Part shown: piece after piece, positions 99 through 59,791 of the stretch | Numbering within the stretch: the first letter of the stretch is position 1 | Layout: each line of letters starts with the position of its first letter | Assembly (NCBI GenBank): GCA_016342355.1 | Contig: JAEINP010000014.1 | Location: forward strand, 1 to 64,000 | Direction: 5' to 3' | Source: Desulfatibacillum sp. | GTDB lineage: Bacteria; Desulfobacterota; Desulfobacteria; Desulfobacterales; Desulfatibacillaceae | DNA length: 64,000 bases | Position numbers and translations under genes: made by a program | Notes under the pieces: generated by a model | What the model was told of the DNA's origin: nothing | Seen by the model: the letters and a program-made list of their open reading frames with translations, nothing else | The model's database searches: none

Positions 99-3000
99 TC
101 AACCCAGTTGATTATTGATAAAGCCTTTGATTCTTTCGGTTTCAGCTTTTAAGGCTTCCAGGGTTGCATCTGTGTCGGAGATTTCCTGGTCCCGGCCCAT
201 GATTTCCAGGCGGTAGGCAATTTCTGCGGCTGTTCCTGCGGCAAGATATTTAAGTGTTCCTTTATACTTATGGGCGGTTTCCTCCAGGGCTTTGGAGTCC
301 TTTGCTTCCAGGCTTGCCGAGATATTGGCTACAGATTTGTCCACATCCCCCATAAAGGTTATCAAACAATCTTCCAGGAGTTCCTGGTCTCCCCCCATGA
401 TTTCCAGGGCAGCTTCCATGTCCAGGGGCGGGGCGGCGGTTTCTTCTATAACAGGATCGGGGACGGGAGTTTGCGGCATTTCATGTGCTGTTTTCTGATT
501 CGTCACATATGCAGGAGGTTGGGATTCCGCCGATTCGGGGGAAGTTTCTTCCTCTTTCCGGGGGGGCGCGCTTTTTCCAGGCTGTGGATCCCTATCCTTT
601 TTGCCAAAAGAGCGGATGACCTTTTCCAGTGCGTCCCGTTTGAGAGGCTTGGTGAGGTAGTCATCCATTCCTGCTTCCAGGAACTTTTCACGGTCTCCGG
701 GCATGGCATGGGCGGTTAGGGCGACAATGGGTGTTTTGACGAGTTTTTTGGCGGCCTCGTATCTCCTGATTTTTATGGTGGCTTCGATGCCGTCCATAAC
801 CGGCATTTGACCGTCCATGAGTATGAGGTCGTATTGTTCGCCGTTGATAATGGCGTCCAGGGCTTGTTTTCCGTTGTTCGCAACCACCACGCTGTGGCCC
901 AGCTTAATCAGGTTGGTAACCGCCACTTTCTGGTTGATTTCATTGTCGTCAGCCAGGAGTATGTGGACTTTCTGGGATTCTTCCACAGAATGCCGGGTGA
1001 CGATTTGTTTGGGCTGGCCTGGCTGCTTTGTCTTGGTTCCCAGAGCGATAGCCAAGCACTCGAATAACTGGGATTGTTTGATGGGCTTGGTCAGGTATGC
1101 TGCAAACCCGAGTTTTTCCAAAGCCTGGGCATCGCCCCGCATTCCCATGGAAGTGAGCATGACCAGGGTGAGGTCCTTAAAACGTTCATCCCCAATAATT
1201 GTCTTGCCCAGGGTGAGGCCGTCCATTTCGGGCATTTGCATGTCCAATATGGCAAGGTGAAAAGGGTCGTTTTCTTCATGGGACTTATCCAGTAATTCCA
1301 GGGCCTGCTTGCCGCCCGGGGCTTCCGCGGGACGGCTGCCCCATGCCCGGAGCATTTCCCGTAGGATGATTCGGTTGGTTTCCACATCGTCCACCACCAG
1401 GACCCTTTTTCCACGGACTTCCGCCATAGCCGGTTTTTCGTGGGCGTCTTTGGCGGATTTTTGAAGAACCGCGGTGAACCAGAACGTGGAACCCTCTCCC
1501 TCGGCGCTGATGAGGCCAATTTCCCCGTCCATCATTTTGGCGAGTTTTTTGGAGATGGCCAGGCCAAGGCCTGTTCCCCCGTGCTTCCGGGTGGTGGAGG
1601 GGTCTGCCTGGGTAAAGGGGCTGAACAGTATCCCCTGTTTGTCAGGCGGGATGCCTAAGCCCGTGTCTCTGACTTCAAAGCGTAGTGTGGCCGATTCCTG
1701 ATCTTGGGAATCCAGGGAGACGCGCAGGACCACTTCCCCCTTTTCCGTGAACTTGACGGCATTACCCGACAAGTTCATGAGAATCTGGCGGAGCCTGCCC
1801 GGGTCGCCCTTGAGCCATAAGGGGACGTCATGATGGATGAGACAAGCCACTTCCACGCCCTTGTCGTCTGCTGGCACAGAGAGGACGTCCGCCACCCCTT
1901 CCACGGTGTGCCGGAGGTTGAAGTCGATGACTTCCAGGTCCAGCTTGCCGGAATCAATTTTTGAGTAATCCAGGATATCGTTGATAACCCGCAGCAAAGC
2001 TTCGGCGCTGGAATTGATGCGCTCCGCAAATCCCCGTTGCTCCTCATTCAGATCTGTTTCAATAAGCAACTCCCCCATGCCGATAACGCCATTCATGGGA
2101 GTGCGGATTTCATGGCTCATGTTGGCCAGAAACTGGCCTTTGGCCATGTTGGCCAATTCCGCTTCAACCGCCAACTGATTGGCGCTTTCCACCAGGATTT
2201 CCAATTGTTGATTGGTTTGCTCCAATTCCTGTTTAGCGTCCAGGATTTCCCGGGTTGTCAGGTTTTTTTCTTCAATCATCCTGGAAACATTGGAGGCCAG
2301 CTCGGCGATTTCATCGTTTCCTTCCATGGGAAACTGGTGTTCGATCTTTCCCTCGGCCACCTCTTTGACAATGGTGTTCAGGGTGTTAATAGGCTTGGTC
2401 ATCCGGGTTGCCGCAATATACACGAATAGGATGGTCAGGAATGCCAGACCCGCTCCTATGCCAAGCATAATGCACATATCTTGATTGGGTTTTGTCATGA
2501 TTTCTTTGCTTGGCACACGGGCCATGAAAAGCCATGTGGTCTCCGCCCCGGAGAATTCGATGGGAATGAGCGTATTCAGAAACCCCTGGTCAAAAAACAT
2601 ACTGCTGTGTTTGGATGAATTTGCCAGTAAGGTGGCGTCCTTGTTCCACCCCAGTTCCGAGACGTTGTTTTTGGGGGGGCCGATATTTGTGCTTCCTGCC
2701 ACAATGTCCCCGTCCTGAGTGATCACGTAGAAACGCGCATGAGGATTAGGAGTTTGGGCCTCAAAAAGCAGTTTTTCAATGGTTTTTAAATCAATGATCG
2801 CCCCCACCACCCCGCGGAAATTATCGTGGTATAAAATGGGCGCCGTTACTGTTAAGAATTTGCCATATTGGTTGGCCAAACTGTGGAATTGGGGTTTGGA
2901 TATATGGTTGGAATGGGTCGCCCTGATAAGCTCATAGGGGCACAAGGGATTGTTTGTCTCAATGGGCGCAGTTGCCAAATGAAAAATACCCATAGAATTC

Positions 3001-3425
3001 CTAAACCAGAATGGTGCAAATCGTCCCTGAGCCGTGTGCCCCAAGGCCCCCTTGAAAAGGGTATCCATGCCGTCAAAGGCATTGGGCTCCCAAACTGTGT
3101 ACACTCCCAAAAAATTGGGGTTTTCTTGAGAGATTTTCTCCATTACATCGTTGGTTGCATCCCGGCCAATCCGTGCGGAAGCCTGGGAAATATTAAAGCA
3201 CGAAAGGGTTTGGGCAAGGGTTTCGCTGACGCCCAGGGCAACATCGATTTGAGTTCTAATGCCTGCTGCATACTGACGGGATGCTTCCAGGTAGTGGCTT
3301 TGGGCGGACTCTATGGAAGCCCGCCTGATGGCGACGGCGCCAAAAGTCCACACAGCGGCCAGCATAATGCCCACGCCTAATCCAACGACTACGGTCAACC
3401 GAGTTCTTATGGAGTTAAATAACAT
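99..3425 (-). CDS. Hybrid sensor histidine kinase with two receivers and Hpt
   Basis: An 1108-residue membrane sensor kinase. An N-terminal transmembrane helix (about 10-32) and a second near 318-338 bracket a roughly 280-residue periplasmic Cache-like sensor region; HAMP follows (about 340-395). The HisKA box reads [10 protein letters not shown] with phospho-accepting His438. A HATPase domain contains DTGLGIP and GTGLGLAI. Two receivers follow with acceptor Asp728 ([10 protein letters not shown]) and Asp871 ([10 protein letters not shown]). A Pro/Glu-rich linker then leads to a C-terminal Hpt domain with His1052 in AHKYKG. All relay residues are present, so a full His-Asp-His-Asp phosphorelay within one chain is likely. 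No dedicated output regulator is adjacent; the PilZ gene upstream on the same strand is the nearest candidate partner, which is only positional inference. Confidence 0.93.
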
Positions 3426-3546: not shown

Positions 3547-3891
3547 TTATGAGACATTATCCGGAGTATTGTGCCTGACAATGTTGAACAGGTTGATGGA
3601 ACTGTCCCCGTCAATATCAAACAAGGTGAGCCCCATGGTATTAAAACCGTGGCTCTGGCCCTCATCGCTCCTGATTATCTTGAAATTGGCAAGGACCAGG
3701 AGCGATTCCCGTCCCATGACATGGAGAATCCTGACCCTCCCTGAGGTCCCCAGGGGCAAAGACTTGGGACTGGATACCAGCATTCCGTTCATGGAAAGGT
3801 TGCGACACCCCACCTCTATGCTTTCTCCGTCCACATCCATCGTGGCATGTACGGTAAAATCAACACGCGGCCATTTTCGTTTGTTGTCCAT
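3547..3891 (-). CDS. PilZ domain protein
   Basis: A 114-residue single PilZ domain, expected to bind cyclic di-GMP. The RxxxR-type element lies at the extreme N-terminus (KRKWPRVDF) and the second signature is NLSMNG followed by the typical hydrophobic barrel strands. The frame is open further upstream (to 4047), but the start at 3891 is preferred because AGGAGG (3901-3906 on the complementary strand) sits 9 nt before it, and the resulting length matches a lone PilZ domain. It lies upstream of, and in the same direction as, the hybrid kinase, separated by about 120 bp. Direct c-di-GMP binding is a family property and was not shown here. Confidence 0.8.
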   Translation of the reverse strand: MDNKRKWPRVDFTVHATMDVDGESIEVGCRNLSMNGMLVSSPKSLPLGTSGRVRILHVMGRESLLVLANFKIIRSDEGQSHGFNTMGLTLFDIDGDSSINLFNIVRHNTPDNVS

Positions 3892-4149
3892 TCCTTCGGC
3901 CTCCTGGTGCATTAGATCCATTATGATGGCTCCTTGGAGTTTTTTAGTTTCCAACAATTGCTCCCCAGTGGTTAAGCAATAAGCATGCCAAGTCAGGTTT
4001 TTTTTGGGCGGAAGTCCCATGTTATCAGGGCTTGACGGATGGGGCAAAAAAATGTAGTTGGTTTACCAAGCGTTCAAAAAATTGGACAAAACTTCCATCC
4101 GGCGTGCCTTGCGCCACCTTGCCATCTCTTTATTTGAAAGGTGTTAACC

Positions 4150-5886
4150 ATGCATTTTGATCTCATCATAGAACAACCTTTGGTGTATGACGGCTCGGGA
4201 ACCAAGCCAGTCACCCTGGACGTGGGGGTGAAAGAAGGCAAAATTCAGGCTTTGGACAATCTTTCGGAAGCAGGGGCGGATACCCGAATACATGCCCATG
4301 GCATGGGACTGTGCCCGGGATTCATCGACGTCCATACCCATGCGGACATGGCATTGCACCGGCCCGAGCAGGTGCGGGTTCTGGAACCCCTGGTGCGGCA
4401 GGGCATCACCACCATTGTGGGGGGGAATTGCGGGGTGACCATGGGGCCTATCTCGGACAGGAATCCGGATTTCCAATATAAATTCTATGAAATTTTTTTG
4501 GGCAAAGACCAGCAGCCATATATTAACTGGAAGGGCTTTGGGGAAATGCTGGAATCCATGGAGGCGGGAGGCCTGCTACTTAATACGGCTATGCTCGCCC
4601 CCCACGGGATTCTTCGCATGCATGCCATGGGAGACAGTGTGGAAGTGGCAGGCAATGAGGACCTTTCCATCATGGAAAAGGCTCTCCGGGAATGTATGGA
4701 AGCCGGAGCCATGGGCATGAGCACGGGCCTGCAATATTTTCCCGGTTTGTGCTCGGACTCCCGGGAGTTGCTGGAACTGGCCAAAGTGGTGGGAGAATTT
4801 GACGGTGTTTTTACCTCCCATCTGCGGAGTTATAATTCGGACGGCCTGCAAAAGGCCATGGACGAAATCATGGACATCGGGCTGGAAGCCCAAATTTCCG
4901 TGCAACTAAGCCATTTGTTCTGGGTGCCTTATTTATTTGAGCCTGTGAACACCATCATGAAGGCCTTTATCAAAGCTGCCAGCCGATTGTACAAGATACA
5001 CCCCTTTCCCCTGCCTTTGGGCTCGTCCACCAAATCCCATTTGGCAAAGGTGGCCCACAGGGTGGACCAGGGCCAGCCCATTGGGGTGGACGCCATGCCC
5101 ACCAGCGCGGGATTCACCCATCTTTTCGCTTTTTTTCCGCCATGGAGCCTGGAAGGGGGCATGCACGGGGTGTTAAAGCGCATCGCTGATCCCAAGGAGC
5201 GCCTGCGCATCAGAAAGAGTATCGAAAACGGCAAGCCGGTTTGGCCTCACAGGGGGCCTGATTCCTGGTCCATGAATCTTTTTAAGGTCATGGGATGGGA
5301 TTGTGCGTCCGTCATGAGCGTTACCACGGAGAAAAACCAGAAATACCTGGGCATGAATTTTGGCGAGATAGGCAAGCTCCAGGGCAAGCATCCCTTTGAC
5401 GCGGCCTGTGACATGGCCCTGGAGGAAAATGGTCGGGTGCTGATTTTCGAGACCCCCACCTATCCGGGCGATCCCATGGTGGAATTGTCCCTCCAAGGGA
5501 CCCTGGTGGACCCCAATGTGAGTATTGGCACCGACCTCATTCCATTGGGATTTGGAAAGCCCTCCCATCTTACCTATGACTGTTTTCCCAAATTTCTGGG
5601 TCAGTATGCCCGGGACTGGAAACTCCTGGCCCTGCCCGAGGCCATTAGAAAATGTACGGAACTCCCCGCCTCCCAGATCAAGATTCCCAACCGGGGCAAC
5701 ATTGCCAGGGGTTATTGGGCGGACATGGTTTTGTTTGATCCCGAAACCATTGGTTCCAACTCTACAGCCCAGGACCCGGCGCATTTTCCCAAGGGAATCC
5801 AAAAGGTCTTCATCAACGGCAGGATGGTGGTGGACGGCGAGAATTTTATGCCAGACCCCATGCCCGGTCAGATGATCCGAAAATAA
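4150..5886 (+). CDS. N-acyl-D-amino-acid deacylase family amidohydrolase
   Basis: A 578-residue amidohydrolase-superfamily enzyme resembling D-aminoacylases. It has the metal-binding HxH motif DVHTHAD (His62, His64), a conserved Cys in GGNCGV (Cys94), a downstream SHLRSY histidine, QLSHL, and the late catalytic aspartate in IGTDL. These match the residues used by D-aminoacylase for zinc and proton transfer. The C-terminus carries the usual beta-sandwich motif (IARGYWADMVLFD). The ATG at 4150 follows GAAAGG with proper spacing; a GTG three codons upstream is in the same frame. Such enzymes hydrolyse N-acyl-D-amino acids, but the substrate cannot be decided. No peptidase or transporter neighbours are seen. 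Confidence 0.85.
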   Translation: MHFDLIIEQPLVYDGSGTKPVTLDVGVKEGKIQALDNLSEAGADTRIHAHGMGLCPGFIDVHTHADMALHRPEQVRVLEPLVRQGITTIVGGNCGVTMGPISDRNPDFQYKFYEIFLGKDQQPYINWKGFGEMLESMEAGGLLLNTAMLAPHGILRMHAMGDSVEVAGNEDLSIMEKALRECMEAGAMGMSTGLQYFPGLCSDSRELLELAKVVGEFDGVFTSHLRSYNSDGLQKAMDEIMDIGLEAQISVQLSHLFWVPYLFEPVNTIMKAFIKAASRLYKIHPFPLPLGSSTKSHLAKVAHRVDQGQPIGVDAMPTSAGFTHLFAFFPPWSLEGGMHGVLKRIADPKERLRIRKSIENGKPVWPHRGPDSWSMNLFKVMGWDCASVMSVTTEKNQKYLGMNFGEIGKLQGKHPFDAACDMALEENGRVLIFETPTYPGDPMVELSLQGTLVDPNVSIGTDLIPLGFGKPSHLTYDCFPKFLGQYARDWKLLALPEAIRKCTELPASQIKIPNRGNIARGYWADMVLFDPETIGSNSTAQDPAHFPKGIQKVFINGRMVVDGENFMPDPMPGQMIRK

Positions 5887-6436
5887 GGGGAGAGTTCTTT
5901 CTCCTGCGGCTGCCGCCCGGGTTGCGCATTGCTGCGCCCGGGCGGCCAGGAAAAGATTCCGGCCCTTTGGGGGCGAGTTTCAAGCCTGAACATTGGTAAA
6001 AATCACTTAAACATTATCTTTGGTGTATTATAATGCTATGAAAATTCAATTTCTGCCTGTTGCTTGACTCTGAAGCAAGGTTCTGCCACAATATCAGCGA
6101 TTTGAACTTGGCCGTCAATTGGCGACGGATCAGCCAGGAATATGGAAAAGGGGGAACTGTGCAGGAATGATTTTGAGAAGATTTTATGCTTCTGCAATAG
6201 GTCTGTATTCTTTTTTTCCTGCCCGTTTGAATGTCATCGTGTTCCAGTCCAGGCCAAGCCTTTCTGTCCAAATAACTTTGGAATTACCTGCCTGACCAGA
6301 TTTTGTCCAATGATGAACTGCCGGGATTTTTCCATCCCACATGTTCACATTGCGCTCTGGCATATACGAGACCATGCTCCCAGCCATGGCTCAACCCAAA
6401 AAACCGGTCCAGTATTGAAGGGAAAGGGGATACCCC
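5887..6436. other. Intergenic region, mostly unexplained
   Basis: 550 bp between the amidohydrolase and the QueG-like gene. It holds a strong GC-rich inverted repeat near its start (listed separately). Short frames exist on both strands, the longest uninterrupted one being on the minus strand at 6184-6387 (67 residues), but none has a convincing start site, composition or recognisable motif. I see no RNA gene. Confidence 0.5.
5912..5946. repeat. GC-rich inverted repeat
   Basis: Arms GCCGCCCGGG (5912-5921) and CCCGGGCGGC (5937-5946) pair perfectly, and the spacer itself contains GCGCA/TGCGC, so nearly the whole element folds. It lies 25 bp after the amidohydrolase stop. There is no T-tract, so it is not a canonical intrinsic terminator. 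It could be a REP-like element or an mRNA 3'-end stabiliser. Confidence 0.6.
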
Positions 6437-7459
6437 ATGGTAAGGCGTAAGATGAAAGACCACTACCGGAAACTTTCCTTCATCACGGATTTAGGTGGAA
6501 TGCAAAGCGCTTTGGGTGAATTGCGGGGATTTGGGCATCCCAAGCAGCCCAGTCTCACCCCGGGATGCCCACACCAACCCGGGGACCCTGTGCTGGACGA
6601 AAATTGGTTTTGCGGGACCATCAAGGGGAAAATTGCAGGCCACCCGGAAAACGGCATGGAGTATCCTTTTTACGGGGAGCGCATTTTTGAGGAGGCCCTG
6701 GTGGGTTTTGTCAAAGGGGATGATCCCATCTTTGAGGAGTACAAGGAGATCATCGGGCCGCACCATTTTACGCCTTGGGAAATCATGGCGTGGCAGGCGA
6801 AAAACAATGGCGTGGAGCCCCCCCCGGCAGAAGATATTTCCGTGGTAAGTTTTGTCATGCCCCTCACCAAGGCCACCAGACAGGACAATAAAATGGCCAC
6901 GGACTGGCTTGCGGAGCGATGGGCGCAAACCCGTCTTCACGGCGAGTTGTTCAGCCAGATTTTTGTGCGGGAAATCGTAACCTACCTCATGAGCCGGGGC
7001 ATCCTGGCAGTCGCACCGGACGTAACCCCCATATTCAATAAAAAGCGGTATCCCAATGTGGGATGGGCGTCTCCCTGGTCCCACCGCCACGTGGCCTATG
7101 CCGCAGGCCTGGGGACCTTTGGCATGCACGATTTTCTCATTACGGAAAAAGGCTGCGCTCACAGGCTGGGCAGTTTTGTGGTCAACCTGAGGCTTCAACC
7201 AAATCGGGAGCGGCCCGAGGATATCCATGCCAATTGCCTGCACTATCAAGGCAAGAAGTGCCTGAAATGCATGGAACGATGCCCTGCGGACGCCATTTCC
7301 CGGGACGGCGCCCATGACAAGGAAAAATGCTACAAACGCGTGGCCGATTCCCTGAAACACTGCAATAGAAATTACCACATCTTCATTTACGGTTGCGGGC
7401 TTTGCGCCACGGGTGTGCCCTGCGAGTTCCAGATTCCCAAGCCTCTCCAAAAAAAATAG
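6437..7459 (+). CDS. QueG-like / reductive-dehalogenase-like iron-sulfur protein
   Basis: A 340-residue cytoplasmic-looking protein of the epoxyqueuosine reductase/reductive dehalogenase iron-sulfur fold. The central part contains AYAAGLGTFGMHDFLIT, typical of the cobalamin-binding half of QueG-like proteins. The C-terminal half has a ferredoxin-type cluster motif CLKCMERCPADAI, and a further set of cysteines (CGLCATGVPC) could complete a second cluster. It is not a close match to canonical QueG, so the substrate is unknown. ATG 6437 follows an AAAGGGG ribosome site; an in-frame ATG at 6452 is an alternative. No corrinoid or tRNA-modification genes are nearby. Confidence 0.75.
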   Translation: MVRRKMKDHYRKLSFITDLGGMQSALGELRGFGHPKQPSLTPGCPHQPGDPVLDENWFCGTIKGKIAGHPENGMEYPFYGERIFEEALVGFVKGDDPIFEEYKEIIGPHHFTPWEIMAWQAKNNGVEPPPAEDISVVSFVMPLTKATRQDNKMATDWLAERWAQTRLHGELFSQIFVREIVTYLMSRGILAVAPDVTPIFNKKRYPNVGWASPWSHRHVAYAAGLGTFGMHDFLITEKGCAHRLGSFVVNLRLQPNRERPEDIHANCLHYQGKKCLKCMERCPADAISRDGAHDKEKCYKRVADSLKHCNRNYHIFIYGCGLCATGVPCEFQIPKPLQKK

Positions 7460-30735: not shown

Positions 30736-31250
30736 GAATAGCCCCTCCTTGTGATCCCGGCAGGCCTGGCGGCCCGCCCTTTATGCTGTGTTTGAACGGC
30801 TGATCGCCCAAAGGCTTAAGGCAAGTGCGGCAATAAGAATAGAATTGACGAAAAGCGTACCACAAAGCCCCTGATAATTGCAAGGATGGGAAATGGCTTG
30901 GTTATTGGAGTAATTAGAGGGCTGTTTGCTTGCCCCCATCCTGTCCCTGTCAGAGGCGGACAAGCCTCCCCCGCGTGGGGGGAAGGGACGAAGACTGGAG
31001 GGAGAAGGCCTCCGAGCGGTTCAAAACGATGACTTGGGCGGGTGGCGCTGGCGCCATAAAATAGCAGTAGGGTGGCCCAAGCCTGTCATTCCCGACTAGG
31101 ACATTCGGGAATGACCATGGGTAGGGAACAGGCCGGATTAGCGATCATGGTCCACGGCAATCCCTTTTTGCATGTCCTAAATGATTGACACTTTCCAGCC
31201 CTGAAACTATGCTCCTGCCCATGTCAATCCTCAATTCTTAAGGGGTATCC
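30736..31250. other. Intergenic region between hydrogenase operon and kinase gene
   Basis: 515 bp between divergently transcribed units. It contains one copy of a dispersed palindromic repeat (30933-30993), and the promoters of hdrA (leftward) and the kinase (rightward) should lie here. A 60-codon minus-strand frame (30781-30963) is not protein-like. Confidence 0.5.
30933..30993. repeat. Dispersed palindromic repeat, copy A
   Basis: Shares CCCCCATCCTGTCC at one end and GGGGGGAAGGGACGAAG at the other with copies at 50064-50106 and 54736-54779. This copy has an extra insertion of about 17 nt in the left half. CCCCCGCGTGGGGGG forms the central hairpin. Confidence 0.75.
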
Positions 31251-50063: not shown

Positions 50064-50106
50064 CCCCCCATCCTGTCCTTTCCCCGCAAGGGGGGAAGGG
50101 ACGAAG
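50064..50106. repeat. Dispersed palindromic repeat, copy B
   Basis: CCCCCCATCCTGTCCTTTCC, then CCGCAAGGGGGGAAGGG and ACGAAG. It is almost identical to copy C at 54736-54779 and partly to copy A at 30933-30993. The stem is CCTTTCCCC/GGGGGGAAGG with GCAA as loop. It lies within the trp operon, between trpG and trpD. Confidence 0.8.
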
Positions 50107-50219
50107 ATTCACGAACTTCAACCAATAAATGATTCGTGGGTCGAGTTTAAAACATCCGTGCGTAGCGCAAATTGATTCCAACTTTGATTGTTTTAAAACA
50201 AAATATGGGAGGATACAGC

Positions 50220-53904: not shown

Positions 53905-54702
53905 ATGAGCTGCATAAAAAATGGTTTTGAAACATTAAAGGGTAAAAACGAAAAAGCCCTTGTGGGCTTTGTGACCGCCGGAGACCCGGACTTTGACAGA
54001 TCCGTGGAAATCGTCCGCGCCATGTGCGACGGGGGCATGGATGTTTTGGAATTGGGCATTCCTTTTTCGGACCCCACGGCGGACGGCCCGGTGATCCAAC
54101 GTTCCTCCCAGCGGGCGTTGAAGTCCGGCATGAGCCTTGTTCGGGTGCTGGAAATGGTCAAGATCGTTCGGGGCTTCACATCCATTCCCATTGTCCTGTT
54201 CGGCTACTACAACCCGATTTTCAGGTATGGGGGCAAGGCTTTCTGTCAGGACTCCCTGGCCGCCGGGACGGACGGGGTGTTGATTGTGGATCTGCCCCCG
54301 GAGGAATCGGCGGAACTCACTTCCCAATGGGAAGGGGCTGATTTTGATTTTATCCGTCTGGTGGCCCCCACCACGGGACCGGACCGCATGAAGCAAATTG
54401 CCGACGAGGCCTCGGGGTTCATCTATCTGGTTTCCATGACCGGGGTCACGGGCAGCCAGGGACTGGACAGCTCCAAGGTAGGGGCGGTCATTGCCCCTCT
54501 CAAAGCCGTGACGGACTTGCCGGTATGCGTGGGCTTTGGCATATCCACGCCTGACCATGTGAAAGCGGTGGCTATGGTCTCCGATGGCGTGGTTGTGGGG
54601 TCCGCCTTTGAAAGGCTGATCGAGGAAAACCTGGAAAACCCGGGCCTGTGCGGCATGGTGCGGGAATACACCCAGTCCCTGAAAGACGCCACCAAAATTT
54701 AG
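53905..54702 (+). CDS. trpA: Tryptophan synthase alpha chain
   Basis: A 265-residue TIM barrel that cleaves indole-3-glycerol phosphate. The catalytic Glu is in [16 protein letters not shown], the catalytic Asp in [10 protein letters not shown], and [10 protein letters not shown] and [11 protein letters not shown] bind substrate and phosphate. The length is standard. It is the last trp gene before a 230-bp gap holding repeat copy C, then aroB. Confidence 0.97.
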
Positions 54703-54735
54703 AGAATTTGGGGCCATTTAGGGGTCAAATCATTA

Positions 54736-54779
54736 CCCCCCCATCCTGTCCTTCCCCCGCAAGGGGGGAAGGGACGAAG
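54736..54779. repeat. Dispersed palindromic repeat, copy C
   Basis: CCCCCCATCCTGTCCTTCCC then CCGCAAGGGGGGAAGGG and ACGAAG, nearly identical to copy B. The stem is CCTTCCCCC/GGGGGGAAGG. It sits 34 bp after trpA, between trpA and aroB. Confidence 0.8.
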
Positions 54780-54931
54780 TTTTAAGGATTTTGGCCTCAG
54801 GAAAATGCGCGGGCGGTTAGCGAGTAATCGGTTCGCAACCCAATTGAATGCCAATAACGAAAGTTTGTATGAAAATTTTCATCCTCTGTTGTGGGCCACG
54901 GGTCCATGTGTTTTGAGAAAGAAATAGGAAA

Positions 54932-55957
54932 ATGGTCAGAGAACTGAAGATATCAGGCAAGACCGGCGATTCCAGGATTATGGTGGGGGAGGCCCTGGGA
55001 AACCTGGGCCTCCACCTGCCCAAAGGCAAAACCGCCGTCATCATCACAGATACGACGGTCAACAGCCTGTACGGAAACCTGTTTCCGGTATGCCCGGTGC
55101 TGGAGATCGGCGAAGGAGAGAGCGTCAAGACTCTGGAGACAGTCGCTTTCCTCATGGGCGAACTGGTGGCTTTGGGCCTGGACCGCTCCTGTTTTATTGT
55201 GGGGATCGGCGGCGGTATTGTATGTGATGTAGCGGGCTTTGTGGCTTCCACCTTCCTGCGCGGCGTGGATTTCGGGTTTTGCCCCACCACGCTCCTGGCC
55301 CAGGTGGACGCCAGCGTGGGCGGTAAAAACGGGATTAATTTCCAGGGTTACAAGAACATGATGGGCGTGTTTAACCAGCCCTCCTTTGTGCTGTGCGACC
55401 CCAAGGTATTGAAAACCCTGCCCCGGGACCAAGTGGCCAGCGGATTCGCCGAGATCGTCAAGCACGGGGCGATCCGGGACGAATCCCATTTCGCCCTGCT
55501 GGAGGACAACAAGGCCAAGGCTTTGGCGCTGGACGTCGAATTCATGGTCCATTTGATTTACGATTCCATCGCCATCAAGGCGGACGTGGTCAACCAGGAC
55601 GAAAAGGAAACCGGAATCAGGAAGATATTGAATTTCGGGCATACCTACGGCCACGCCCTGGAAAAGGTGGGGGGAGTCTCCCACGGAAAGGCGGTCAGCG
55701 CAGGTATGGCCATGGCGTGCAATTTGTCCATGGACCGGGGGCTGTTGAAGGAAGTGGACAGCGAACGCATCAAGAGGTTGCTGTCGGACATGGGTCTTCC
55801 CTTGCACATTGACGTGGATCCTGGCAAGGCCCTGGACGCCTTGGCCAAGGATAAGAAAAAGTTGGGGGATGCCATCCAGTTTGTCCTGTTAAAAGGCTTA
55901 GGCCAGGCGGTGGTGGAGAAGATTTCCATCCGGGAATTGGAAAAAAAACTCTGTTAA
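54932..55957 (+). CDS. aroB: 3-dehydroquinate synthase
   Basis: A 341-residue NAD-dependent enzyme forming 3-dehydroquinate from DAHP. GIGGGIVCDVAGFVASTFLRG binds NAD (motif runs about residues 90-110), PTTLLAQVDASVGGKNGIN holds catalytic and zinc residues, LPRDQVASGFAEIVKHG and NFGHTYGHALEKV supply the zinc Glu and His. The C-terminus reads KISIRELEKKLC. A second copy of the last 88 bp lies at 57752-57839. It follows the trp genes in the same direction, so may be part of the same transcript. Confidence 0.95.
   Translation: MVRELKISGKTGDSRIMVGEALGNLGLHLPKGKTAVIITDTTVNSLYGNLFPVCPVLEIGEGESVKTLETVAFLMGELVALGLDRSCFIVGIGGGIVCDVAGFVASTFLRGVDFGFCPTTLLAQVDASVGGKNGINFQGYKNMMGVFNQPSFVLCDPKVLKTLPRDQVASGFAEIVKHGAIRDESHFALLEDNKAKALALDVEFMVHLIYDSIAIKADVVNQDEKETGIRKILNFGHTYGHALEKVGGVSHGKAVSAGMAMACNLSMDRGLLKEVDSERIKRLLSDMGLPLHIDVDPGKALDALAKDKKKLGDAIQFVLLKGLGQAVVEKISIRELEKKLC
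55870..55957 (+). repeat. Left copy of duplicated aroB 3' end
   Basis: The last 88 bp of aroB, including its stop, are repeated at 57752-57839 with no indels and about 15 mismatches. A block of 35 bp (55913-55947) is identical. The two copies bracket the two-gene islet. Confidence 0.85.
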
Positions 55958-56170
55958 TCCAATCCTTGAGACTAAAAAGTGTCATGCTCGCATTTGCATA
56001 AAAAAAATGTCGGATCTCTTCGTATTTATGACGAGGGCATTCATTTTTTTTAAGGACTGTTCTCTTGCAGCCGATGGAATGGTAAGGCATAGCCATCCCA
56101 AATATTTGGTTCTATCCTAAAGGCAACTTGCCGATATATTGATGATTGTTAGGTATATTGAATTTCGTAG

Positions 56171-56199
56171 TTGCACGATATCAATTAAGGCTTTACAAT
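56171..56199 (+). promoter_or_regulatory. Possible promoter of the islet gene pair
   Basis: TTGCAC (56171-56176) and TACAAT (56194-56199) are spaced 17 bp apart in an AT-rich stretch, 52 bp before the first islet gene. The -10 matches five of six consensus bases, the -35 only three. Confidence 0.35.
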
Positions 56200-56251
56200 T
56201 AGCGTGGGATTTGGTTAAATTTTTATCTTTTTTTATTAGGTACACACGAAA

Positions 56252-57031
56252 ATGACCGACTATCGAAAAATTGACCACCTGCTTCAGTATATCCTTACTT
56301 TGGCGGGGGAGGAGGAATGGGATAACCGGGAACTCGGCCCCATCCACCTTATAAAATATTTGTACCTATCCGACTTGGCCTATGCGACCGATACGGGCGG
56401 GGAGACGTTTACTGGGCTGCCATGGCGATTTTATAAATTCGGGCCATGGGTCGAAATAGCCTACGAGCGGATAGAGCCCGCCATGTTGGCTATCGGAGCG
56501 AAAGAACGCATTTTTTCCACTCCCAAATATGATGACATTAAGCGGTATTCGAAGGTGGACGACCGTTTGCTCTCTCAACTGGAAGAAGGGGTGCCTCTCG
56601 TTATTTGTGGCCCGCTCCGTAAGGCGGTTCATGAGTTTGGCTCGGATACGGAAAGCCTTTTGGATTATGTGTACAAGACCTTGCCCATGCTGAAGGCTGC
56701 CCCCAATGAGCCTCTGGACTTTTCCCAGGTAGCCCGGAAGCAAAAAGCGGACGAGCCGAAAACAGAGCAAGAAGCCCTGACCATGCGTCAAAAGAAAAAA
56801 CGGAAACAGGCAGTCGATGATTTGAAACGCAGATTCCAGCTAAGAACGGCCCCCAAGGACAATACGCTAGTCGCCCCGCAAGAAGAACCGCGCTATGATG
56901 ATGTGTTCTTTGAAGGGGTCGAATGGTTAGACCTCTTGCCAGGCGAGCCTGTTGAGCCTGGGGAAGCAATGGTGCATTTTCATCCCGATGTCTGGAAGTC
57001 AAAGGCCAGATATGATCCGGACTTATCCTGA
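56252..57031 (+). CDS. Panacea/SocA-like (DUF4065) protein, candidate antitoxin
   Basis: A 259-residue protein. Residues about 1-125 resemble the Panacea (DUF4065, SocA-type) domain: DHLLQYILTLAG, then HLIKYLYLSDLAYATDTGG, FTGLPWRFYKFGPWVEI and ERIEP, matching the usual Lys/Tyr-Leu helix and a KFGP turn in place of YGPV. A basic coiled segment (about 165-205, QKKKRKQAVDDLKRRF) leads to an acidic C-terminal part (YDDVFFEGVEWLDLL). Panacea domains are known as antitoxin parts that neutralise different toxins. The gene overlaps the next by 20 bp, typical of toxin-antitoxin pairs. The assignment is by motif pattern only. Confidence 0.6.
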   Translation: MTDYRKIDHLLQYILTLAGEEEWDNRELGPIHLIKYLYLSDLAYATDTGGETFTGLPWRFYKFGPWVEIAYERIEPAMLAIGAKERIFSTPKYDDIKRYSKVDDRLLSQLEEGVPLVICGPLRKAVHEFGSDTESLLDYVYKTLPMLKAAPNEPLDFSQVARKQKADEPKTEQEALTMRQKKKRKQAVDDLKRRFQLRTAPKDNTLVAPQEEPRYDDVFFEGVEWLDLLPGEPVEPGEAMVHFHPDVWKSKARYDPDLS

Positions 57032-57731
57032 CAATACGTTTCAATATTTTTGTGACCCTTGGTGGGAAAGGGATGAGGGAAAGAGTTATTGTCGGGGCAG
57101 GCTTGTCCAGGTTTTCATCCCGCATGTGGGTCAGACTCCCTATCAATTGATTCCTCAAGGCCGCGCAGAAGCCACGATCCACGATAAAGCCTTGTGCCAA
57201 ATTGCTCCTTTACGAGCCCACCAGAAAAAGCCCTCCACAAAATTGCCGATGGCCGGGATACCGGTTTATTCAGGTGAAGTTTTGACCGTTTATCGAGCCA
57301 AGCTCAGACCTGCGCTTATCATCGCCAAAGAAGGCAAAGAAGTAGATAAGGTCCTTCGTCAGGACAAACCCAAGTGGCAAACATCTCCGACTATCCTGGT
57401 CGCCCCGTATTATGGAGCAGATGAAGGAGGAAAACGGGCAGGTTTTAAATCGGAATTTCGTTCCCGTGTTTGCACGGGGGAGTATCCGCAGTTTGTTTGG
57501 GACAGCCTGCCCATTGGCCCCTCGACAGAAGAATCCATTCTTAGGCTGGATCATATTCAACCTGTCGGCGACCACCACGAATCCATCAATTTGACCCCGT
57601 TCAAACTTACACCCGAAGCCCTTGACATCATTGATGAGTGGATAAGGTGGCTGATTTGGGGTGTGTGGAAAGAAGGCTCTAGTTTCGATTTTCTTAGGGC
57701 CGAACTGATGGCCATAAGCAAAGACGAGTAG
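57012..57731 (+). CDS. PemK/MazF-like protein, candidate toxin
   Basis: A 239-residue protein with features of the PemK/MazF fold in its C-terminal half: KLRPALIIAKEG (the usual RPALII strand), TSPTILVAPYYG, a Lys/Arg-rich loop, EESILRLDHIQPV near the end, and a closing helix. The N-terminal 85 residues (cysteine- and tryptophan-rich, RTYPDNTFQYFCDPWWERD) are not recognised. The start at 57012 overlaps the upstream gene by 20 bp in another frame, indicating coupling. MazF-type proteins cut RNA; activity here is unproven, and the longer size is atypical of MazF (about 110 residues). Confidence 0.55.
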   Translation: MIRTYPDNTFQYFCDPWWERDEGKSYCRGRLVQVFIPHVGQTPYQLIPQGRAEATIHDKALCQIAPLRAHQKKPSTKLPMAGIPVYSGEVLTVYRAKLRPALIIAKEGKEVDKVLRQDKPKWQTSPTILVAPYYGADEGGKRAGFKSEFRSRVCTGEYPQFVWDSLPIGPSTEESILRLDHIQPVGDHHESINLTPFKLTPEALDIIDEWIRWLIWGVWKEGSSFDFLRAELMAISKDE

Positions 57732-57751
57732 CCCCTCATCGTACCTCATCC

Positions 57752-57839
57752 TGCCATCCAGTTTGTTTTGTTAAAATCGTTGGGACAAGCCATTGTGGAG
57801 AAGATTTCCATCCGGGAATTGGAAAAAAATCTTGGTTGA
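57752..57839 (+). repeat. Right copy of duplicated aroB 3' end
   Basis: Translates in frame to AIQFVLLKSLGQAIVEK and KISIRELEKNLG followed by TGA, against KISIRELEKKLC in aroB. It has no start codon or upstream coding part, so it is a gene fragment. Block 57795-57829 is identical to 55913-55947. Confidence 0.85.
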
Positions 57840-58336
57840 TGTTTTTTGACGGAGAGCAAACCATCTATTCCGTGGGCAGCATTATTAGATGTCCACAGGA
57901 AGGCTTGTAAGGGCTTTAATAAAATGAAATTGTAGAGCTTTTTGTCGGATCATTATTTTTAACAAAGTGGATTTTTTCATGTCGTTTGCTCACAGGCTAT
58001 CGGGGGGGAAGTTGCGCCGTCCTTTGTCGCCTATGGGTACAAGGATCACGCAAAGTCAGCCTTACCCGGCCTGCGGCCAATTAGTCCGGTAATTTCCAAC
58101 GGCTATTAGTCATGGGCTAACTGTTTGTAACCTTGAATAAAACTTTCCTGATTTATTTTTCCTCCAAAGGCTTTCTCGCCTAACCTCCAAGCCCATGCTT
58201 GGACTTTATCCGGATTTGATGTATGGATATGCGGGTTTTCAGGCTTTGGAACCTTTTTTTGAAAGCATAGCCTTGAAGAAATACCTGTCTGACTCAATAT
58301 TTTATACTGCCTCATTATCTTTCGGAGGACTGACTC
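57840..58336. other. Intergenic region downstream of the islet
   Basis: About 500 bp between the right aroB tail and the acyl-CoA synthetase alpha gene. It contains a weak minus-strand ORF (listed separately) and the promoter of the alpha gene. No integrase fragment or tRNA was recognised. Confidence 0.4.
58106..58315 (-). CDS. Small hypothetical protein (doubtful)
   Basis: A 69-residue minus-strand frame ending WRLGEKAFGGKINQESFIQ plus a short tail. The C-terminal half looks protein-like (charged amphipathic helix with Ala/Gly), but there is no strong ribosome site (GAAAG only) and it is not recognised. It starts just upstream of and divergent to the acyl-CoA synthetase alpha gene. It could be a gene fragment left with the islet or a chance frame. 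Confidence 0.3.
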   Translation of the reverse strand: MRQYKILSQTGISSRLCFQKKVPKPENPHIHTSNPDKVQAWAWRLGEKAFGGKINQESFIQGYKQLAHD

Positions 58337-59791
58337 ATGCTTGACCAGGAACGCGAGCAAATTGACCGGATGTGCCACCCCAGGGGAATCGCAATCTACG
58401 GAGGTGTTGCAAAATTCGGATCCTTTGCCAACAGTGTTATGCTGGCTATAAAAAAATACGGATACTCAGGCAAGATCTATCCCATTTCCAGCAAGGAAGG
58501 GGACGTCCTGGGGATTCCCCTGATTTCCAGCCTGGACAAGGCGGACGGCCCGATTGATCTGGCCTCCATATCGGTTCCGGCCAAGGCGGTCCCGGACATC
58601 CTGGCCCAGTGTTTGGCCCATGGGGTGGCGGGGGTGCAGGTGCATACATCCGGCTTCGCCGAAATGGGGGACGCCGAGGGGATCGCCTTGCAAAAAGAAT
58701 TGGAGGCTTATGCCGCCAAGGGCCTGCGCATTGTCGGTCCTAATTGTTTCGGCATTCATTGCCCTAAGGGCGGGCTCACCATGCTGCCGGGCTTTGACTA
58801 CAGCAAGGAACCCGGCCCAGTGGCCATGATTTCCCAAAGCGGCGGGCTGGCCAACGATTTCGGCCACGAAGCCTGTCTGGCCGGTCTGGGGCTATCCAAG
58901 GTGATTTCCTTTGGCAACGGGTGCGATCTGGACGCCATATCGCTCATGGAATACTTGGGGGAAGATCCGGATACCCAGTACATTGCCGCATATATCGAAG
59001 GGGTTGCCGACGCCAGTGCATTTTTGGACGTGGTTCGTAAGACGGCCCGGAAAAAGCCCGTGGTCATCTGGAAAGGCGGATTGACTCCTTTGGGAGGCCG
59101 TGCCACCCTGTCCCATACCGGTTCCATGGGCGGGGAGTCCAAAATATGGGAAGGGGCTTTGGCCCAGGCTGGCGCTTACTCGGTTCAGGGGCTGGACGAA
59201 ATGATGGACACCCTCATGGGTCTGGTTTACACCAAAAGCCGGGGGAAAAGGATCGCTCTGGTGGGGGGAGGCGGCGCCATTGGCGTGTTCACCTCGGACC
59301 TTGCGTATCGTTGGGGGCTTGAGATGCCTGTGTTCAGCCAGCAGACTCAGGACAAGTTAAGGGTGTATTTTCCCACCCCCGGCAACAGTATGAAAAACCC
59401 CTTGGACACAGGAACCCCTGCCCTGCCCCTGGACACCCTCAAGGGATGCGTGAAGGAGATTCTGGAAGCGGAACCCATTGACGTCATGGTTCTCATGCTC
59501 CTGACCCATCCTTTGGAAACGGTTGCCTTCACCTTTATGGACATGTACGGTATGAAGGCCTTTCCTCCAGGGCATTATGTGGAAAGTCTTTTTGACACCC
59601 TTGTGGAACTGAAGGAGCAAAGCGGCAAGGATCTGGCCTTGGTCTTTGAAAACAGGGCCTATCGTTTGGAGGATATGGAAGCTGAAGCAGCCTGGAGGGT
59701 TTTGCGGGAAAAGTTTCAGAAAGCGGGAATCCCTGTATTTGCCAGTGCGGAAAGGGCGCTCAGGGCGGTTCGCAACGCTTCCGCAGCGTGA
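58337..59791 (+). CDS. Acyl-CoA synthetase (NDP-forming), CoA-binding alpha subunit
   Basis: A 484-residue protein with the alpha-subunit domains of NDP-forming acyl-CoA ligases. A CoA-binding Rossmann domain (about 15-140) shows IAIYGGVAKFGSFANSVM, then IYPISSKEGDVLGIP and IVGPNCFGIHCP. Succinyl-CoA-ligase-like domains follow, with VAMISQSGGLANDFG, SFGNGCDLDAISLMEYLG, and TLSHTGSMGGESKIWEGAL, in which the His is the phosphorylation site. There is no ATP-grasp domain; the likely partner is at 19445-20116. CGGAGGA precedes the ATG. Substrate unknown. Confidence 0.9.
   Translation: MLDQEREQIDRMCHPRGIAIYGGVAKFGSFANSVMLAIKKYGYSGKIYPISSKEGDVLGIPLISSLDKADGPIDLASISVPAKAVPDILAQCLAHGVAGVQVHTSGFAEMGDAEGIALQKELEAYAAKGLRIVGPNCFGIHCPKGGLTMLPGFDYSKEPGPVAMISQSGGLANDFGHEACLAGLGLSKVISFGNGCDLDAISLMEYLGEDPDTQYIAAYIEGVADASAFLDVVRKTARKKPVVIWKGGLTPLGGRATLSHTGSMGGESKIWEGALAQAGAYSVQGLDEMMDTLMGLVYTKSRGKRIALVGGGGAIGVFTSDLAYRWGLEMPVFSQQTQDKLRVYFPTPGNSMKNPLDTGTPALPLDTLKGCVKEILEAEPIDVMVLMLLTHPLETVAFTFMDMYGMKAFPPGHYVESLFDTLVELKEQSGKDLALVFENRAYRLEDMEAEAAWRVLREKFQKAGIPVFASAERALRAVRNASAA

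What the first reader, a model, noticed from the sequence alone, without database searches (positions are those of the whole stretch)
55958..57839. A two-gene islet at the 3' end of aroB, bounded by a second aroB tail
Seen in sequence: the last 88 bp of aroB (55870-55957) recur at 57752-57839 with no gaps, about 15 mismatches and a 35-bp identical core. Between them is an AT-richer segment of about 1.9 kb carrying only two overlapping genes. Replacing a gene's 3' end while leaving the old tail downstream is what site-directed integrative elements do. Here the target is a core metabolic gene rather than a tRNA, and there is no integrase, so the unit may be a non-autonomous islet using a trans-acting recombinase. 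The target could be a hot spot for swapping small defence genes.
Basis: partly seen in the sequence, partly recalled or inferred. Interest (0 to 1): 0.85.

Follow-up and report, generated by a model that had tools for sequence, protein, structure and literature searches.

The report
Toxin-antitoxin islet between two aroB tails
A probable two-gene toxin-antitoxin unit sits between two unlike copies of the end of a core gene, and look-alike loci suggest that such units can enter chromosomes by one recombination event using a borrowed piece of a related bacterium's gene.

Summary
Confirmed: aroB's last 88 bp recur after a 1.8-kb segment holding two overlapping genes (83% identity, 35-bp identical core). 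The genes form a conserved pair: a weakly Panacea-like antitoxin and a predicted MazF-like toxin. aroB is not a hot spot: 0 of 81 other aroB loci have a second tail. But the anatomy recurs around other toxin-antitoxin-like pairs at other targets (aat, an integrase gene, phage genes). Tail copies tend to differ silently, as orthologues do, around long identical cores. In the one case with enough relatives (aat, genome G148) the tails look like reciprocal hybrids: the intact gene has a sister-like body and a foreign end, the detached tail a foreign body and a sister-like end. Best explanation: a single crossover between the chromosomal gene tail and incoming, probably circular, DNA carrying a relative's tail plus the pair. 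No integrase, dif site or attC motif was found. Enrichment over acetyltransferase loci is modest (7 of 48 versus 1 of 50, P 0.03) and the control was chosen after the first cases were seen. It resembles "insertion with long target duplication" known for restriction-modification systems, but one repeat appears imported. Gene functions and the circle are inferred.

The parts
54932..55957 (+). aroB, 3-dehydroquinate synthase, intact; its last codons probably come from the incoming DNA
   Evidence: TIGR01357 335 bits over cut-off 305; last residues EKKLC against EKNLG in G001
55870..55957 (+). left aroB tail (part of the intact gene)
55913..55947 (+). 35-bp identical core, left copy; proposed crossover interval
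   Evidence: run of 35 or more by chance P 0.003
55958..56251 (.). 35% GC spacer, presumably with the promoter of the pair
   Evidence: GC; promoter not tested; no Rfam match at E 1 or better in 54600-58500
56252..57031 (+). antitoxin-like gene, 259 aa, weak SocA/Panacea match
   Evidence: PF13274 20.9 bits, below the cut-off of 25.7; 13 of 13 aligned relatives match
57012..57731 (+). toxin-like gene, 239 aa, predicted MazF-like fold; overlaps the first gene by 20 nt
   Evidence: no Pfam family; AlphaFold2 model pLDDT 67 and Foldseek hits to MazF
57752..57839 (+). right, detached aroB tail; last codons resemble G001, body codons lower in GC3
57795..57829 (+). 35-bp identical core, right copy

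Best explanation
The islet is a toxin-antitoxin-like pair that entered the chromosome by one reciprocal crossover between the recipient's aroB tail and a divergent aroB tail carried on the incoming DNA next to the pair, most simply on a small circle (Campbell-type insertion). The product reads: native body + foreign last codons (the intact aroB), the pair, foreign body + native last codons (the detached tail). Shown: the two tails, their codon-like divergence and identical core, the conserved gene pair, recurrence of the anatomy around other toxin-antitoxin-like pairs, and hybrid-like tails in one case with relatives (aat in G148). Inferred: the circle, homologous recombination as the machinery, toxin and antitoxin activity, and persistence because excision between the repeats would lose the antitoxin and be punished.
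For: (1) Tail divergence is mostly silent: window 8 of 12 differing codons (expected 2.5, P 0.001), L085 10 of 17 (P 0.007), L240 7 of 13 (P 0.02); weaker in L076 4 of 9 (P 0.09) and L190 2 of 2 (P 0.18). So both copies have a coding history, unlike a local copy left to decay. (2) Identical runs longer than chance: window 35 bp P 0.003, L085 83 bp P 0.004, L240 53 bp P 0.017, L190 55 bp P 0.054, L076 58 bp P 0.23; combined without the window 5e-4 for runs and 1e-3 for silence. (3) aat in G148: 7 of the other 9 genomes of its genus have one aat, 2 have none found. At 16 differing sites of the body, G119 (nearest by aat protein, 91%) agrees with the intact gene at 11 and the detached tail at 2; at 6 differing sites of the extreme end it agrees with the intact gene at 0 and the detached tail at 6: a reciprocal switch. 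G201 agrees with the detached body at 10 against 4; the intact gene's end is most like G079 and G185 (4 of 6). (4) Same direction in the window after the core: of 4 differing sites G001 agrees with the right tail at 3, the left at 0. (5) Third-position GC of the 14 pre-core codons: right 50%, left 71%, aroB 75%. (6) The same gene pair lies between repeats at an unrelated target in an IMG/VR contig (L190: 172 bp, 92%, right copy 24 bp after the toxin stop).
Against: In the window the native/foreign assignment rests on few sites: before the core G001 agrees with left 5, right 4, neither 2 of 11. Only one case has relatives enough to show a switch; its zones were drawn after the alignment was seen, kinship rests on aat itself, and the DNA after the detached tail matches none of the 7 relatives' DNA downstream of aat (the one 20-bp hit to G119 covers the coding end), so native flanking DNA is not shown there. 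Most relatives of the pair have no bracketing repeat: 4 of 38 places have one of 80 bp or more, two of them not gene tails (L082, a repeat with 21 matches in its genome; L083, intergenic). The family control is modest (7 of 48 versus 1 of 50, P 0.03; 5 of 46 versus 1 of 50, P 0.10, without two multi-copy cases). No circle was seen.
Confidence: 0.55

Rival explanations
1. Site-specific integration: a recombinase acting in trans inserts circles whose attachment site mimics a gene tail. The whole left tail, or everything after the crossover, comes from the element and the right tail is the old gene end.
For: Gene end replaced and old end kept; the 35-bp core could be an attachment core; no recombinase needed in the islet.
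Against: Homology extends 42 bp upstream of the core with silent-biased differences, more than a short core needs; bracketed pairs lie at unrelated targets and the switch point in aat (around GGAAATGGG) is not the aroB core, though no formal motif search across cores was made; no dif-like site.
Confidence: 0.18
2. Insertion with long target duplication in place: the pair inserted, aroB's tail was copied, and the copies then diverged.
For: Repeat length fits the order of 100 bp described for restriction-modification systems (PMC3874152, passage); aroB's 3' end is a synteny breakpoint between G000 and G001, and such insertions are said to go with rearrangements.
Against: A detached tail should decay without regard to codons: 8 of 12 changed codons silent, P 5e-5 by fraction or 0.001 by count; in G148 the two tails have different affinities.
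Confidence: 0.12
3. Old tandem duplication of aroB: the right tail is the stub of a second aroB whose front was lost when the pair entered.
For: Silent divergence fits two once-functional paralogues.
Against: A second tail in 0 of 81 other loci including G001; does not explain the identical core (P 0.003), nor recurrence around other pairs.
Confidence: 0.08
4. The bracketing is a by-product of sampling: repeats of this kind are common in accessory DNA and the pairs sit there by chance.
For: Some bracketed units are not clear pairs (L066 no cargo match, L080 with an aspartyl protease); only 4 of 38 places in the window's own gene family; control enrichment modest.
Against: No such repeat in 80 aroB loci, 1 of 50 acetyltransferase loci against 7 of 48 ParE loci; random 1.5-kb units 12 of 562, of 80 bp or more 1 of 562 (units overlap and are not independent).
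Confidence: 0.07

Closest known systems
Insertion with long target duplication of restriction-modification systems (Nobusato 2000; Furuta 2010: not read, known as cited in passages of PMC3874152 and PMC3031569)
   Same: Small addiction-type cargo, no mobile-element genes, direct repeats on the order of 100 bp, link to rearrangements
   Different: Cargo is toxin-antitoxin-like; the two repeats differ as orthologues do and in one case look like reciprocal hybrids, so one appears imported
PanAT systems: Panacea (DUF4065) antitoxins with varied toxins (PMC8832971, passages read)
   Same: Two-gene locus, antitoxin first, Panacea-like part
   Different: Match is below Pfam's cut-off; the toxin-like family matches no Pfam model; whether this pair is in that paper's lists was not checked
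MazF/Kid mRNA interferases
   Same: Predicted fold of the second gene: 49 of the 50 hits listed are MazF/Kid entries
   Different: 239 aa against about 100-120 for the listed chains; no sequence match to solved structures; moderate model confidence
Integrative elements at gene 3' ends (recalled)
   Same: Gene end replaced, old end left downstream
   Different: No integrase; long diverged homology on both sides of the core
pdif (dif) modules of Acinetobacter (search listing and starts of abstracts only)
   Same: Small modules, often toxin-antitoxin, without their own recombinase
   Different: No dif-like site at the ends

Membership tests
PanAT toxin-antitoxin system | Panacea domain in the antitoxin | tested here: inconclusive
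   20.9 bits against a cut-off of 25.7; 13 of 13 aligned relatives match, best E 1.5e-4; in the own genome 21.4 bits, not over cut-off
PanAT toxin-antitoxin system | conserved adjacent partner gene | tested here: met
   antitoxin-like gene beside the toxin-like gene in 21 of 22 loci fetched; the exception, L073, begins at a contig end
PanAT toxin-antitoxin system | toxicity and its neutralisation | not testable with these tools
   needs expression assays
MazF-like toxin | MazF/Kid fold | tested here: inconclusive
   best Foldseek hit E 1.1e-3, probability 1.00, but none at E 0.001 or better, on a model of mean pLDDT 67 and pTM 0.62 from 7 sequences
Insertion with long target duplication | long direct repeats of target sequence at both ends | tested here: met
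   other loci
Insertion with long target duplication | empty site in a relative | tested here: inconclusive
   G001 lacks the islet but the DNA after aroB differs; aat case: 7 relatives with one aat, but downstream DNA unlike
Insertion with long target duplication | the repeats are copies of one target made at insertion | tested here: not met
   silent excess in the window; hybrid-like tails in G148
Integrase-bearing integrative element | integrase gene within the element | tested here: not met
   two plausible genes between the tails, neither matching an integrase model
Integron cassette | attC-like motif and hairpin | tested here: not met
   left tail: no GTTRRRY or RYYYAAC, fold z -0.9 (motifs recalled)
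pdif module | 28-bp XerC/XerD sites at the ends | tested here: not met

The most novel reading that the evidence does not exclude
Toxin-antitoxin units of unrelated families move between chromosomes as recombinase-free small circles that each carry the end of an ordinary gene from their last host, insert by one crossover into the same gene of the next host, complete that gene's end, and are then held in place because excision between the two tails kills the cell. The diverged tail pairs are a readable record of the donor.
Probability: 0.25. Interest if true: 0.85.

Novelty: new variant of a known kind. Interest (0 to 1): 0.6.

Why it matters
How chromosomal toxin-antitoxin pairs without recombinase genes reach new chromosomes is unsettled; the held reviews read in passages speak of horizontal transfer and, for restriction-modification systems, of insertion with long target duplications of unknown mechanism. 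If the two repeats are hybrids of a native and an imported gene tail, the 'target duplication' is not made at insertion but carried in, the donor lineage can be read from the detached tail, and the mechanism can be tested with an ordinary integration assay. Addiction would explain why such repeat-bounded, excisable units stay.

Tried and rejected
aroB as a hot spot: rejected (0 of 81 other loci with a second tail; 14 of those 81 gave only short hits with E 0.002-0.05, taken as chance). Decay of a local copy: disfavoured. dif-like and attC-like sites: not found. tRNA or known RNA at the site: none. Plasmid records hold only distant antitoxin relatives (5 records, up to 52% coverage) and none of the toxin; phage records none of the antitoxin. 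PADLOC no match. L082's repeat as target duplication: weak, it is dispersed in its genome. L065: only a 38-bp terC-like fragment left of the pair, with an intact gene to the right, not counted as a case. Own-genome sample of 400 kb: repeats only in a repetitive protein, Rhs-like genes and neighbouring paralogues, by eye. Antitoxin model against the PDB gave only weak hits (best E 0.04, DarTG chains). An earlier count said that 20 bp downstream of the detached aat tail match G119; that is wrong, the 20 bp are the coding end.

Rows dropped: one search left out 4 of 23 loci for short flanks; one search left out 2 of 20 ParE loci at contig edges; one search screened no edges. Thresholds differ: one search listed repeats of 40 bp or more (the GNAT hit L268, 41 bp, is not counted in the 60-bp comparison), of 60 bp or more. 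The codon test used the five ungapped gene-tail cases; L066, L080 and L239 (gapped alignments) were not tested. One search fetched 20 of the 30 match places; fetched 80 aroB loci from the listed part, best matches first.

Full report
What is there. The last 88 bp of aroB recur 1.88 kb downstream, 83% identical, without gaps. The differences are not spread evenly: a 35-bp identical core lies between a diverged part of 42 bp upstream and 10 coding bases downstream; a run of 35 or more has P 0.003 if the 15 mismatches were placed at random. Between the tails lie a 294-bp spacer of 35% GC and two genes overlapping by 20 nt; the second gene's stop is 20 bp before the right tail.

What the genes are. 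The first (259 aa) matches Pfam's SocA_Panacea weakly, 20.9 bits against a cut-off of 25.7, as do all 13 aligned relatives. The second matches no family. Its AlphaFold2 model (mean pLDDT 67, pTM 0.62) has as best matches MazF-family mRNA interferases: 49 of the 50 hits listed, best E 1.1e-3. The two genes stay together in 21 of 22 fetched loci, the exception beginning at a contig end. The toxin-like gene was found in 26 of 389 genomes of the order, 15 of 395 of the phylum sample, which includes the window's genome and repeats some others, two other genome contigs and IMG/VR contigs. In several loci the toxin-like frame is interrupted. I take the pair to be a toxin-antitoxin system of PanAT type; this is inference.

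aroB is not special. In 82 aroB loci (window, G001 and 80 of the order) only the window has a second tail. G001, the only other genome of the genus found, has no second tail, and its aroB is followed by a phoU/pst-like region, whereas the CoA-ligase gene that follows the islet in the window lies on another contig of G001; the counterpart of G001's phoU region lies on another contig of the window's genome. So the aroB end is also a synteny breakpoint, and no clean empty site is available for the window.

The anatomy recurs. Looking for direct repeats of 60 bp or more, 0.6-8 kb apart, in 132 loci (1.28 Mb), none of the 80 aroB loci had one, while these did: L190, an IMG/VR contig, with the same gene pair between 172-bp repeats (92%) made of the tail of a helix-turn-helix gene and the intergenic DNA before a Mor-like gene; L085, a PIN-domain gene with an unknown partner between 256-bp repeats (92%) of a gene tail; L076, an HI1420-type antidote with a Gp49-like gene between 255-bp repeats (94%); L080, an HI1420-type antidote with an aspartyl-protease-like gene between copies (83%) of an integrase tail; L068, a clear Panacea gene (67.9 bits) with a 121-aa partner between 114-bp repeats (91%) that lie after a gene, not in it; L066, small frames without a match; L082 and L083, the window's gene family between intergenic repeats, the former dispersed in its genome. 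Three loci of a 400-kb sample of the window's own genome had repeats of other kinds by eye (L202, L203, L209). Of 38 places of the window's gene family, 4 have bracketing repeats of 80 bp or more (window, L082, L083, L190).

Control. Taking ParE-toxin loci and acetyltransferase loci of the same order from the tops of the two hit lists, bracketing repeats of 60 bp or more were found in 7 of 48 ParE loci and 1 of 50 acetyltransferase loci (Fisher P 0.03; 0.10 without L259 and L306, which hold several related repeats). Random 1.5-kb units in the fetched loci had repeats at E 1e-3 in 12 of 562, of 80 bp or more in 1 of 562, and that one was L085 itself; the window's gene family had 4 of 19 in the same test (P 0.001, without the window 0.009), but the random units overlap and share loci. 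The control was devised after the first cases were seen.

The tails differ like orthologues. In the five cases with ungapped gene-tail repeats, silent changes exceed neutral expectation in three (window P 0.001, L085 P 0.007, L240 P 0.02; L076 P 0.09, L190 P 0.18) and the longest identical run is unexpectedly long in three (window, L085, L240) and borderline in L190. A local copy left to decay would not change silently; two tails that lived in working genes of different lineages would. In the window the right tail's 14 pre-core codons have GC3 50% against 71% on the left and 75% in aroB, and after the core G001 agrees with the right tail at 3 of 4 differing sites and with the left at none; before the core it does not discriminate (5, 4, neither 2).

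A case with relatives. L240 (G148) holds a DUF4160 and a DUF2442 gene (57.7 and 55.3 bits; I recall these families as a predicted toxin-antitoxin pair) between two tails of aat, 166 bp, 90%. Of the ten genomes of its genus searched, seven others have one aat, two none found, and G148 has one full aat and a second tail. In the body of the repeat, of 16 sites that differ between the copies, G119 (91% identical in aat protein, the nearest) agrees with the intact gene at 11 and with the detached tail at 2, while G201 agrees 4 and 10, G231 5 and 11. In the last codons, of 6 differing sites, G119 agrees with the intact gene at 0 and the detached tail at 6; the intact gene's end is nearest G079 and G185 (4 of 6). 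The table 11, 2 / 0, 6 has an exact one-sided probability of 78/75582, about 0.001. So the intact gene is sister-like in body and foreign at the end, and the detached tail the reverse, with both switches in one short stretch. One reciprocal crossover does that; two separate crossovers in the same few bases, or a local duplication, do not explain it easily. Cautions: zones were drawn after seeing the alignment, kinship is from aat alone, the DNA after the detached tail matches no relative's downstream DNA, and G148 is an 85%-complete assembly.

Mechanism. I propose that a small DNA circle holding a toxin-antitoxin pair and a piece of its former host's gene tail recombines once with the same gene in the new host. 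The gene is completed by the imported end, the pair lies downstream, and the native end follows it, detached. The pair may then be kept because recombination between the two tails would excise it and leave toxin without antitoxin. The circle and the addiction step are not shown. A linear fragment with one homologous and one illegitimate join remains possible for the window, since its right-hand native part is only ten coding bases.

What is known. PMC3874152 (passages) states that some restriction-modification systems insert with long and variable target duplications, in the order of 100 bp, citing Furuta 2010 and Nobusato 2000, which I could not read; PMC3031569 (passages) says the same. PMC8832971 (passages) describes Panacea systems and supposes transposons and prophages behind their shuffling. 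PMC2654758 (passages) mentions ccdO157 as an islet by itself, and PMC4615327 (passages) describes a PabI restriction-modification insertion that replaced 4 bp, not one with long repeats. In the listings of seven searches I saw no title or abstract start reporting toxin-antitoxin pairs between diverged gene tails; the library holds open-licence papers only, so this is weak evidence of novelty.

Verdict. Real feature; observation confirmed; hot-spot and dedicated-recombinase readings not supported. New variant of a known kind, with moderate confidence in the single-crossover mechanism.

Noticed in passing
L085 (G080:C37:207500-223500), 4378-6606: PIN-domain gene plus unknown 329-aa partner between 256-bp copies (92%) of a gene tail, next to a truncated copy of the window's gene family; the second tail has an in-frame stop.
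   Followed up: partly
L240 / L335 (G148:C110), aat locus: DUF4160-DUF2442 pair between two aat tails with opposite affinities in body and end.
   Followed up: yes
L306 (G125:C127), 2140-3397: Three copies of an about 100-bp repeat around a ParE locus, perhaps stacked insertions or related modules.
   Followed up: no
L080 (G348:C5), 3866-5311: Second copy (83%) of an integrase gene's tail on the far side of an HI1420-type antidote and an aspartyl-protease-like gene.
   Followed up: no
window 54737-54791, 50064-50118, 30967-31012: Dispersed intergenic repeat (CCCCCCATCCTGTCC... GGGGGGAAGGGACGAAG), three places, one just after the trp genes.
   Followed up: no
window 55957-58336: The end of aroB is a synteny breakpoint against G001.
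   Followed up: partly
G000:C3:3301-3555: A second Panacea-domain match in the window's genome, 35.3 bits, over Pfam's cut-off.
   Followed up: no
L083 (G081:C345), near the contig end: A frame that begins like the toxin-like gene and continues like a PyrR protein by eye; may be an assembly chimera.
   Followed up: no
L065, L081, L082, L083, L085: The toxin-like gene is split or cut short in several assemblies while the antitoxin-like gene is intact in most of them.
   Followed up: no
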